A DNA stretch of 64,000 nt, taken from NCBI RefSeq assembly GCF_900105785.1, contig NZ_LT629799.1, positions 3,410,001 through 3,474,000 on the forward strand, written 5' to 3'. The notes beneath the pieces are model-generated. The model ran no database searches and was not told the DNA's origin. It saw only the letters and a program-made list of their open reading frames with translations. Below, one piece after another: positions 19,370-33,386 of the stretch. Source of the DNA: Microlunatus sagamiharensis. Lineage in GTDB: Bacteria > Actinomycetota > Actinomycetes > Propionibacteriales > Propionibacteriaceae. Numbering within the stretch: position 1 is the first letter of the stretch; each line of letters opens with the position of its first letter. A program made the translations under genes and the position numbers.

Positions 19370-19437
19370 CCCTCACGGGCTTGGCCGGCCGCAGGAGGCG
19401 TGCGATCCTGGAGGTGAGGCCCGGTCACCGCGGCCTC

Positions 19438-19479
19438 CCGGACGAGGGGTGCTGTACCCGGCAGACGACAAGACGGCCC
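19438..19479 (+). ncRNA. Guanidine-III (ykkC-III) riboswitch
   Basis: The segment contains CCGGACGAGG, GTACCCGG and ACAAGACGGC in the order and spacing of the guanidine-III aptamer known from Thermobifida fusca. CCGG (19438-19441) can pair with CCGG of GTACCCGG, while GCTGT pairs with ACGGC, giving the expected H-type pseudoknot. The GGAGG ribosome site of the SMR gene begins 3 bases downstream, so translational control by guanidinium is likely. Confidence 0.9.
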
Positions 19480-19492
19480 GTGGAGGCTCGTC

Positions 19493-32073: not shown

Positions 32074-32211
32074 TCAGCGACCGGCGTTGGCGAGGAACAC
32101 GAGCTCGGAGCGCATGTCCGAGCCGGACGCCGAGCGGAGGGCGCGGTTGAGCTCGCGCTCCTGGCGGGTGGTCTCGCGGTGGCGGCGGATGGCCTGGGTG
32201 AAGCGGGTCAT
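32074..32211 (-). CDS. Small 45-residue helical basic protein
   Basis: ATG 32211 encodes 45 residues: MTRFTQAIRRHRETTRQERE, then a short helix ending in DMRSELVFLANAGR. The composition is strongly helical and basic, and similar very short proteins appear in other actinomycetes, but no function is known to me. AGGAAGGA lies 7-14 bases before the start. It is isolated, with a long non-coding stretch upstream that begins with a cluster of TTCGA palindromes. Confidence 0.65.
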   Translation of the reverse strand: MTRFTQAIRRHRETTRQERELNRALRSASGSDMRSELVFLANAGR

Positions 32212-32290: not shown

Positions 32291-32401
32291 CTGTACCGGA
32301 TCAACGCCTTCGGCGCGCAGTTATTCCATGTCGAAGTGATGGGCGTCTCGTGAACACACGGGGGCGGCCGATGGCCCGGGCGAGCAGGAGCGGAACGGGA
32401 A

Positions 32402-33149
32402 GTGCCGCCACGACCACTGATGGTCGTGACGGCACCGATACCCCGTCGTGCCGCCCCCGCTGCAGCACCTGAGCCGGAACGAGCGGGCGTCCCCCGACGA
32501 GACGCGCTGTTCGGGCAGGGACAAGTCTGCCGCACCACAATCGTGTGAGGGTGCATTTCTCTCAGGTTCCGTTCAGGCGTGTCGCCTCCCGAACCACGGC
32601 GAGGGCCCATGCGGCGACCCCCCGGTGCCGTCATGGACCCTCGCTCCGCAGGCCGTTCCCCAACGGCCTGCGGTCCCCGTGCGGCTCCCGGCCTCTCGGC
32701 CGGTCACCCTCGGCGCGCATCCCCGTGCGTCCGCCGAGCCCCCTGTGCGCCGGCGGCCGTCCCCTGCCGCTGCCGACGCTTCCCCGTGGCGGTCGATCCC
32801 CACCGACCGCCGCCGGACTCCCCCCTGTCCGGAACCTCGTCCCCCGGCCGGCCCCTCCCCCGACGGGAGTGCCGACCGCGGGTGTGGTGCTGGGCGCCTC
32901 CCCCTGGGGCAGCCCGTCGCCCGCCTCCTCCCCCGACGGGGAGGCGGCACGTCTTCTACGGCGTCGGCCCGCCCTGGTGGTCGGCGGACGCTGCGCGTGG
33001 TGGTCGTCGGCCGCCGGCGGCGGATCCCCGGTCGGTGCCGTGGGGCCGGCGTGCGCCGCGTACGGACGGGCTCGGCTCGGACATCGGGGGCCTCCTGCTG
33101 CTGTCGATCGTCGATGAGCCGGCCCCCGCCTGCTCCGCAGCCCCTGCGG
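32402..33149. ncRNA. Array of stem-loops with CCCC apical loops, candidate structured RNA
   Basis: This is the core of a 1175-base gap (32212-33386) without a credible gene. Successive hairpins have unrelated stems but repeated loops. Examples: CGTC/GACG with loop CCCC (32488-32499); an 18-bp interrupted stem with loop CCCC (32599-32644); 12-bp CCGCAGGCCGTT/AACGGCCTGCGG with CCCC (32646-32673); 32709-32738 (loop TCCCCG); 32751-32772 (CGTCCCCT); 8-bp GGCGGTCG stem (32788-32811, ATCCCCAC); CCGGAC/GTCCGG (32813-32832, TCCCCCCT); 32892-32915 (CCCCT); 33135-33149 (GCCCC). Others at 32430-32453, 32850-32873 and 32921-32947. Strand is not proven. Bases 33150-33386 show no gene, only GGCTCA-type short repeats. 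Confidence 0.6.
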
Positions 33150-33386
33150 GCTGGTGAGGAAGAGACTGCCGTGGTCACCTCGTCGCCGGCTCAGGCCGGG
33201 AGCGGGCGTTCGCTCAGGAGCGGCAAAAGATTGAAGCGTGAAGGATCGAGGCTCAAGAACGGCTCAGGAGAGCGTTGATCGCCTGCGCGGGACGCCGCCG
33301 ACGTGGTGCGACCGAGGCCTGATGGGCCGGCGAGGTCGGCCCGGCGGGCTGCGCCGCAATGGGGTCGGGCGAAAGAGGGAGGAGCG

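What the first reader, a model, noticed from the sequence alone, without database searches (positions are those of the whole stretch)
32402..33149. Array of sequence-unrelated hairpins that share a CCCC apical loop
Over about 720 bases, at least ten consecutive stem-loops present CCCC within the loop (for example 32488-32499, 32599-32644, 32646-32673, 32709-32738, 32751-32772, 32788-32811, 32813-32832, 32892-32915, 33135-33149) while their stems have different sequences. A repeated structure with non-repeated stems suggests selection on RNA (or cruciform DNA) shape rather than repeat expansion. No protein-like frame crosses it. If the + strand is transcribed, TCCCC loops are complementary to GGGGA/GGAGG ribosome sites, recalling C-rich sRNA loops (Staphylococcus UCCC motif, actinobacterial 6C RNA), but here multiplied. 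If the other strand is transcribed, the loops are GGGG. I know of no described family with this layout.
Basis: partly seen in the sequence, partly recalled or inferred. Interest (0 to 1): 0.88.

Follow-up and report, generated by a model that had tools for sequence, protein, structure and literature searches.

The report
Noncoding RNA array of GGGG-capped hairpins
An actinobacterium of the genus Microlunatus appears to carry a gene for a roughly 800-base noncoding RNA built of many different hairpins that show the same GGGG cap, behind the control region of its matrix-protein-like genes, which suggests a decoy that soaks up an unknown regulator of those genes.

Summary
The region holds 6 GGGG-loop hairpins (stem 5 or more) against 1.0 in shuffles (0 of 500 reach 6) and is the densest spot in 464 kb of its genome. 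Syntenic copies exist in 2 of 19 other Microlunatus genomes searched; stems changed with compensation while GGGG loops stayed. The locus begins with a covarying 5' leader and RBS that otherwise precede secreted, weakly TasA/camelysin-like genes; the leader's second hairpin also has an invariant GGGG loop. Two array hairpins (32599-32673) recur in the 3'UTR of one such gene, and GGGGGA motifs occur in the 3'UTRs of others. So this looks like a minus-strand RNA, about 33170-33270 to 32402, with a matrix gene's control region but no such gene. Best guess: a multivalent decoy for whatever reads GGGG(A)-capped hairpins in matrix mRNAs, like CsrB in logic but not CsrB (no csrA in 20 of 20 congeners). 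Transcription, ligand and function are unproven.

The parts
33109..33168 (-). 5' leader element with two hairpins, the second capped by GGGG; also found 5' of TasA/camelysin-like secreted-protein genes
   Evidence: Covariance model R1 hit, E 7.1e-8, 59.7 bits; this sequence was in the training alignment. Blastn paralogues in the own genome at query 699-857 = window 33078-33236
33169..33270 (-). conserved upstream region, probable promoter (TCCTGAGCCGTTCTTGAG ... TTCAATCTTTTG ... CTCCTGAG boxes); promoter type and start site not determined
   Evidence: Shared with paralogous leaders and with the G017 and G014 syntenic loci; promoter role inferred
33082..33096 (-). relic ribosome site and start codon AGGAGGCCCCCGATG, like the AGGAG-C5-ATG of matrix-type genes
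32956..33084 (-). short ORF of 42 aa after the leader; 50 aa in G017 and 74 aa in G014. Those two share an N-terminus (MIV...LR.ARRPRR) that the window lacks, so it is not conserved here, but a short peptide in the relatives is not excluded
32921..32947 (-). hairpin with loop CCGUCGGGGGA; same apical motif in both relatives and in 3'UTRs of matrix-like genes
32813..32832 (-). hairpin with loop AGGGGGGA
32788..32811 (-). hairpin with 10 bp stem and GGGG loop
32753..32770 (-). hairpin with loop AGGGGACG
32716..32729 (-). hairpin with loop CGGGGA
32646..32673 (-). hairpin with 12 bp stem and GGGG loop; 4 of 12 columns compensated on both sides, one broken in G017
32599..32644 (-). long hairpin with GGGGGG in its inner loop; the outer stem is also in the 3'UTR of the 3979k matrix-like gene, whose inner loop has no GGGG
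32487..32505 (-). hairpin with loop containing UCGUCGGGG, inside a block identical in G017
32448..32468 (-). hairpin with loop AGCGGGG
32402..32435 (-). last hairpin, 15 bp stem, 5 columns compensated on both sides, no GGGG loop; candidate transcript end
   Evidence: terminator role inferred (no U-run)

Best explanation
The locus encodes a minus-strand noncoding RNA that starts in a duplicated promoter/leader of matrix-type (TasA/camelysin-like) genes near 33170-33270, keeps the GGGG-capped leader hairpin and a relic RBS, carries no protein conserved in all three species, and runs through about ten hairpins with unrelated stems, most with GGGG(A) loops, to a last long hairpin at 32402-32435. 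SHOWN by sequence: conservation, strand, shared leader, shared 3'UTR hairpins, fixed loops with compensated stems. INFERRED: that it is transcribed, and that it works as a multivalent decoy. Matrix-type mRNAs of the genus carry a GGGG-capped hairpin in the leader, and some carry up to four GGGGGA motifs in the 3'UTR. A factor that reads these caps, a protein or a C-rich RNA, would regulate them. The array RNA, switched on from the same kind of promoter, would compete for that factor, as CsrB does for CsrA, and so feed back on matrix production.
For: Density and strand bias of GGGG-loop hairpins. Same property in the three syntenic arrays at stem 5 or more: 7, 6 and 6 against 1.1, 0.7 and 1.0 in shuffles, 0 of 200 reaching it in each; no CCCC-loop hairpin on that strand at stem 5 or more in any. 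Double-sided compensation in 12 of 53 stem columns of five hand-aligned hairpins; in the two-hairpin module 6 of 28 pairs, 94.6% of cells paired (1 of 500 shuffles reaches this), slid controls 34-48%. Leader: 14 of 240 cells and 5 of 15 pairs changed on both sides, 0 of 500 shuffles as high, GGGG loop invariant in 16 of 16. Leader precedes secreted matrix-like genes. GGGGGA within 240 nt after the stop in 9 of the 21 matrix-like genes whose stop codon was correctly located, by my reading. Module R2 hits only the three arrays and the 3'UTR of the own 3979k gene in 20 genus genomes; all four are its training sequences.
Against: No RNA-seq, so transcription is inferred. The factor is unknown: csrA 0 of 20 genomes, 6C RNA 0 of 20 with weak controls. 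Arrays are known from only three species, so covariation rests on 3-4 sequences and few independent events; I could set out only five of about ten hairpins column by column, and the count of further pair types is not above shuffles (265 of 500). A neutral test of strand gives 5 G-U, 1 A-C and 6 other single mismatches in interrupted stems, only a modest bias. The window's own leader copy is diverged (59.7 bits, while 13 of 18 copies score 71-88). Twelve of 21 matrix-like genes lack GGGGGA in the first 240 nt after the stop. Per base, the densest matrix 3'UTRs hold as many GGGG runs as the array.
Confidence: 0.4

Rival explanations
1. Direct antisense action: GGGGG loops of the array (and of the 3'UTRs) pair with the run of five or more C between Shine-Dalgarno and start codon of matrix-type mRNAs and block or modulate translation, in trans for the array and in cis for the 3'UTRs, like icaR of Staphylococcus aureus.
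For: All 13 leader-bearing starts that I read in G000, G014 and G017 (10 genes, 3 arrays; the start-less G014 701k copy left out) have a run of five or more C between SD and ATG. An exact AGGAGCCCCC-N0-5-ATG occurs at 6 places in the 4.4 Mb own genome (control pattern read backwards: 1); 4 precede secreted or surface-type proteins by my reading, 3 of them leader-bearing. The leader hairpin strand GGGGGCU is complementary to AGCCCCC (sequence). G002 lacks the leader but three of its matrix-like genes have runs of six or more C at the RBS and two of these have GGGGGA in the 3'UTR.
Against: G010 and G018 keep GGGG caps in leader and GGGGGA in 3'UTRs but have AGGAGCCCGCC and AGGAGCCACC. The base after the run is A in 13 of 18, 9 of 12 and 10 of 15 runs of the three arrays, where pairing with GCCCCC would favour C. 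Only about 5 bp of contact.
Confidence: 0.22
2. The array is an ordinary long structured 3' region of a decayed matrix gene: the hairpins only stabilise or terminate the RNA, and the coding part was lost in this clade.
For: Leader, RBS and 3'UTR hairpin homology to the 3979k gene; short ORF after the RBS, not conserved in the window. Per base the array is not richer in GGGG runs than the densest 3'UTRs (12-18 runs in 680-770 nt against up to 5 in 240 nt).
Against: The array is longer and holds more runs in total than any 3'UTR stretch I read. Stems are compensated in three species although the matrix gene is gone in all three. GGGGA-loop hairpins are not the generic terminator of this genome: 15 intergenic in 464 kb by a rough gene call, 4 of them in this array. 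Stabilising hairpins would not need the same loop.
Confidence: 0.23
3. Target of ANTAR-domain regulators, a known hairpin-binding class in actinobacteria, with the array as a sponge.
For: 15 ANTAR-domain matches in the own genome, 13 over the curated cut-off.
Against: Known ANTAR targets are paired stem-loops with hexanucleotide loops having A1 and G4 (PMC8164766, passages). In the three arrays only 1, 1 and 0 hairpins have such a hexaloop and none of these is at a GGGG run.
Confidence: 0.04
4. The GGGG runs assemble into RNA G-quadruplexes or act at the DNA level (cruciforms), the hairpins only presenting them.
For: 12-18 GGGG runs per array, median spacing 21-39 nt.
Against: Long Watson-Crick stems with compensation are unnecessary for a quadruplex; hairpin folding competes with it. 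Interior T-G mismatches on the presumed RNA strand mildly argue against DNA cruciforms.
Confidence: 0.06

Closest known systems
CsrB/CsrC/RsmX/Y/Z sponge RNAs
   Same: Many hairpins with a shared G-rich loop motif (GGA there, GGGGA here) and no protein; linked to biofilm (PMC7652899 passages)
   Different: No csrA in 20 of 20 congeners; longer stems; shares leader and 3'UTR elements with its presumed target mRNAs; actinobacterial
icaR mRNA 5'-3' UTR pairing (S. aureus)
   Same: 3'UTR motif and RBS of complementary G and C runs, in a biofilm-related gene (PMC3868564 passages)
   Different: Here G runs are in the 3'UTR loops and C runs at the RBS; many loops; an extra stand-alone RNA; complementarity not kept in G010 and G018
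ANTAR-target RNAs of actinobacteria
   Same: Hairpins with conserved loop residues as protein sites (PMC8164766 passages); ANTAR proteins present
   Different: No A1/G4 hexaloop pairs at the GGGG loops
6C RNA (RF01066)
   Same: Actinobacterial structured RNA with homopolymeric loops (recalled)
   Different: C loops there (recalled), G loops on the strand used here; no RF01066 match in 20 of 20 congeners, with weak controls

Membership tests
CsrB/RsmZ family | multiple GGA motifs in hairpin loops | tested here: met
   GGGGA 13, 9 and 10 times in the three arrays; by my reading of the hairpin list 7, 6 and 8 of them lie at the tip of a hairpin with stem 4 or more
CsrB/RsmZ family | CsrA/RsmA partner in the same genome | tested here: not met
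   PF02599: 0 of 20 genus genomes, while 3 of 14 control genomes rang
ANTAR-target RNA | two adjacent stems with hexanucleotide loops A1/G4 | tested here: not met
   1, 1 and 0 such hairpins in the three arrays, none at a GGGG run
ANTAR-target RNA | ANTAR-domain protein in the genome | tested here: met
   13 of 15 matches over cut-off
6C RNA (RF01066) | match to the covariance model | tested here: not met
   no match at the locus; 0 of 20 genomes, but only 1 of 14 controls rang, none over cut-off
icaR-type 5'-3' UTR pairing | conserved complementarity between loop motif and RBS | tested here: inconclusive
   present in G000, G014 (RBS only), G017 and G002; absent in G010 and G018
any Rfam 15 family | match at gathering score, or E up to 1 | tested here: not met
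   window scan at gathering score and scan of nine loci at E up to 1 gave no match at array or leader
TasA/camelysin proteins (for the genes that share the leader) | match over the curated cut-off | tested here: not met
   PF12389 20.0 bits against 22.5; NF046066 15.1 against 450; one protein tested
transcribed noncoding RNA | transcript with mapped ends | not testable with these tools
   no expression data at hand

The most novel reading that the evidence does not exclude
A CsrB-like regulatory principle evolved independently in CsrA-less actinobacteria: an unknown GGGG(A)-cap-reading factor controls TasA/camelysin-type matrix mRNAs through hairpins in both UTRs, and a stand-alone array RNA, born from a matrix-gene copy that lost its coding part, titrates it.
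Probability: 0.3. Interest if true: 0.82.

Novelty: new variant of a known kind. Interest (0 to 1): 0.62.

Why it matters
Sponge RNAs with many loop motifs are known for CsrA, which this genus seems to lack. If an actinobacterial lineage built the same layout from the control parts of matrix genes, it would point to an unknown loop-reading regulator, and it gives a ready bait (a dozen or so copies of the site on one RNA) to find it. It would also show how a sponge RNA can arise from a target gene that lost its coding part.

Tried and rejected
Plus-strand C-loop RNA (6C-like, UCCC-type): set aside because leader, RBS and 3'UTR homology read on the minus strand, with modest support from mismatches. 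CsrA sponge in the strict sense: no CsrA. ANTAR: loops do not fit. Generic terminator of the genome: GGGGA-loop hairpins are rare elsewhere. Protein-coding: frame not conserved, gaps not in threes. Ms1 RNA was considered; the paper (passages only) lists Microlunatus among genera with Ms1 and ties Ms1 to a HAD-hydrolase flank. The 153-aa and 45-aa neighbours gave no Pfam or NCBIfam hit; I made no Ms1 model search. First leader alignment A5 had wrong coordinates for two array rows and was replaced by A7. The scan of genome contigs with a leader pattern returned only Microlunatus flavus, whose contig length equals G017:C10, and one Rhodothermaceae MAG that I did not examine; the tool may leave out the window's own or near genomes. 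Paper searches, seen as listings: csrb + gga motif + hairpin loops + actinobacteria, 0 papers; microlunatus + small rna, 2 papers; icar/ucccc/biofilm; 6C; CsrB/RsmZ; TasA/SipW/Actinobacteria/camelysin; srna sponge/actinobacteria/hairpin/gggg. I saw no description of this element in those listings, which is not proof of absence.

Odds changed on checking: I had first written that the array is denser in GGGG runs than any matrix 3'UTR; per base that is not so. I therefore moved the decayed-gene rival from 0.20 to 0.23 and the decoy from 0.42 to 0.40.

Full report
WHAT IS THERE. On + the loops are CCCC, on - GGGG. A strict scan finds 6 such hairpins in 748 nt (shuffle mean 1.03, 0 of 500 reach 6) and none of the opposite sense; at stem 5 or more the locus is the top of 17,972 overlapping strand-windows from 464 kb of the same genome, window included. 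At stem 7 or more another stretch ties with it. Fold z-scores against 20 shuffles are -6.5 (minus) and -4.6 (plus). No Rfam family matches array or leader.

RELATIVES. The genome is one 4.4 Mb contig. Among 57 genomes searched (the own one included), one congener, G017, aligns over window 32399-32954 at 70%; its contig length equals that of Microlunatus flavus NZ_FOFA01000008.1, from which I infer the genus. G014 has the same locus, found through its leader and neighbour gene. The neighbour gene occurs in 20 of 20 congeners. In five others in which the 45-aa neighbour was also found (G007, G001, G018, G010, G002), the two neighbours lie only about 165-235 bp apart, so array and leader are absent there. 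In the remaining 12 congeners the 45-aa neighbour was not found, and the place was not resolved. Model R2 of the module 32599-32684 finds only G000, G017 and G014 in 20 genus genomes and in 147 genomes of the family, there with stricter filters; its four hits are its training sequences, so this tests absence elsewhere and nothing more.

STRUCTURE IS KEPT, SEQUENCE IS NOT. In five homologous stems set out by hand, of about ten in the array, 12 of 53 columns show changes on both sides that keep the pair, 4 change on one side, one is broken and 36 do not vary; on the minus strand there are 160 Watson-Crick, 11 G-U, 0 A-C and 1 other pair. I chose those arms on the minus strand, so the G-U count leans that way. 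A neutral search for single mismatches inside inverted repeats gives 5 G-U, 1 A-C, 6 other. The MAFFT alignment of the two-hairpin module (4 sequences) has 94.6% of cells paired against 34-48% when slid, 6 of 28 pairs changed on both sides (8 of 500 shuffles reach this), covariation score 0.262 (2 of 500); the count of further pair types is not above shuffles (265 of 500). All three arrays keep the excess of GGGG loops (stem 5 or more: 7, 6, 6; shuffle means 1.1, 0.7, 1.0; 0 of 200 each). At stem 4 or more one G017 shuffle in 200 reaches the observed 7, and one CCCC-loop hairpin appears on the minus strand of G000.

THE LEADER. The right end, 33078-33236, has four other blast-level copies in the own genome. 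Each lies directly 5' of a gene for a secreted protein. The one tested has weak similarity to camelysin (PF12389, E 6.5e-4, below cut-off) and TasA (NF046066, E 0.012, far below cut-off); 'TasA/camelysin-like' is therefore a lead, not a membership. A signal-peptidase-like gene beside the own 787k and the G014 1060k genes is my reading from sequence and recall. RNAalifold on 16 leaders, three of them from arrays, gives two main hairpins and a small third; the GGGG loop is invariant, and its closing pairs change A-U to G-C in 6 rows and G-C to C-G in 3, with one row broken. 5 of 15 pairs and 14 of 240 cells are changed on both sides, 0 of 500 shuffles as high. Model R1 finds 18 copies in 5 of 20 genus genomes, two of them not in training: one before another secreted protein (own 1472k) and one in G014 before a short hairpin stretch without a coding gene of its own. 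It finds none outside the genus among 293 genomes drawn from the order, searched with stricter filters.

THE 3'UTRs. Two array hairpins (32599-32673) recur, on the sense strand, about 95 nt after the stop codon of the own 3979k matrix-like gene. Of the 26 matrix-like matches I examined 25; the stop was located in 22, one of them wrongly. Of the remaining 21, nine have GGGGGA within 240 nt after the stop, in G000, G017, G010, G018 and G002 and not in G014 or G016 (my count). Typical is UCGGGGGA at a hairpin tip, some with CCC before it that may close the loop further.

STRAND. The leader, the RBS and the homologous 3'UTR hairpins all read on the minus strand. This, more than the G-U bias, fixes the strand.

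MECHANISM. Matrix-type mRNAs carry one or a few GGGG caps; the array carries 12-18 GGGG runs in 680-770 nt behind the same control region. Per base this is no more than the densest 3'UTRs (5 runs in 240 nt). No protein is conserved in all three (ORFs of 42, 50 and 74 aa); G017 and G014 share an N-terminus, so a short peptide there is not excluded. The simplest function is a decoy for whatever reads the caps. CsrA is the textbook reader of GGA loops (PMC7652899, passages) but is absent in 20 of 20 genomes. Direct pairing with the C5 spacer of matrix RBSs is a main rival: AGGAGCCCCC-N0-5-ATG is rare in the genome (6 places, control 1; 4 before secreted or surface-type proteins), but the C run is lost in G010 and G018, which keep the GGGG caps, and the base after the G run is mostly A, not C. 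A decayed gene with a merely stabilising 3' region is the sober alternative.

VERDICT. Decoy function is an inference of moderate strength. Layout known from CsrB; components and lineage new.

Noticed in passing
window 33109-33168 and L122-L139: The leader itself looks like an undescribed 5' UTR RNA element (two main hairpins, invariant GGGG cap) in 5 of 20 Microlunatus genomes, 5' of secreted matrix-like genes; no Rfam match.
   Followed up: partly
L134 (G014:C1:701096-701154): A second leader copy without a coding gene of its own, followed by a CCCGUCGGGGGA hairpin and then a Dps-like gene (name from sequence and recall).
   Followed up: no
L153/L139 (own genome 1472259-1472344): Leader copy before a secreted repeat protein that does not look TasA-like, so the leader's regulon is wider.
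   Followed up: no
own genome 4250815 (L156): AGGAGCCCCCCATG before another secreted surface-type protein, without an R1 leader hit.
   Followed up: no
window 19413-19482 +: Guanidine-III riboswitch (RF01763, 54.2 bits).
   Followed up: no
window 32077-32211 -: 45-aa protein with no Pfam or NCBIfam match, found near the same neighbour gene in seven other congeners, preceded by a promoter-like stretch conserved in G017 and G014.
   Followed up: partly
G002 matrix-like genes (L100, L106, L111): 5'UTR hairpin whose loop holds a run of five or six C after CAGGA, resembling the RBS, with GGGGGA in the 3'UTR of two of the three: possible 5'-3' loop contact.
   Followed up: no
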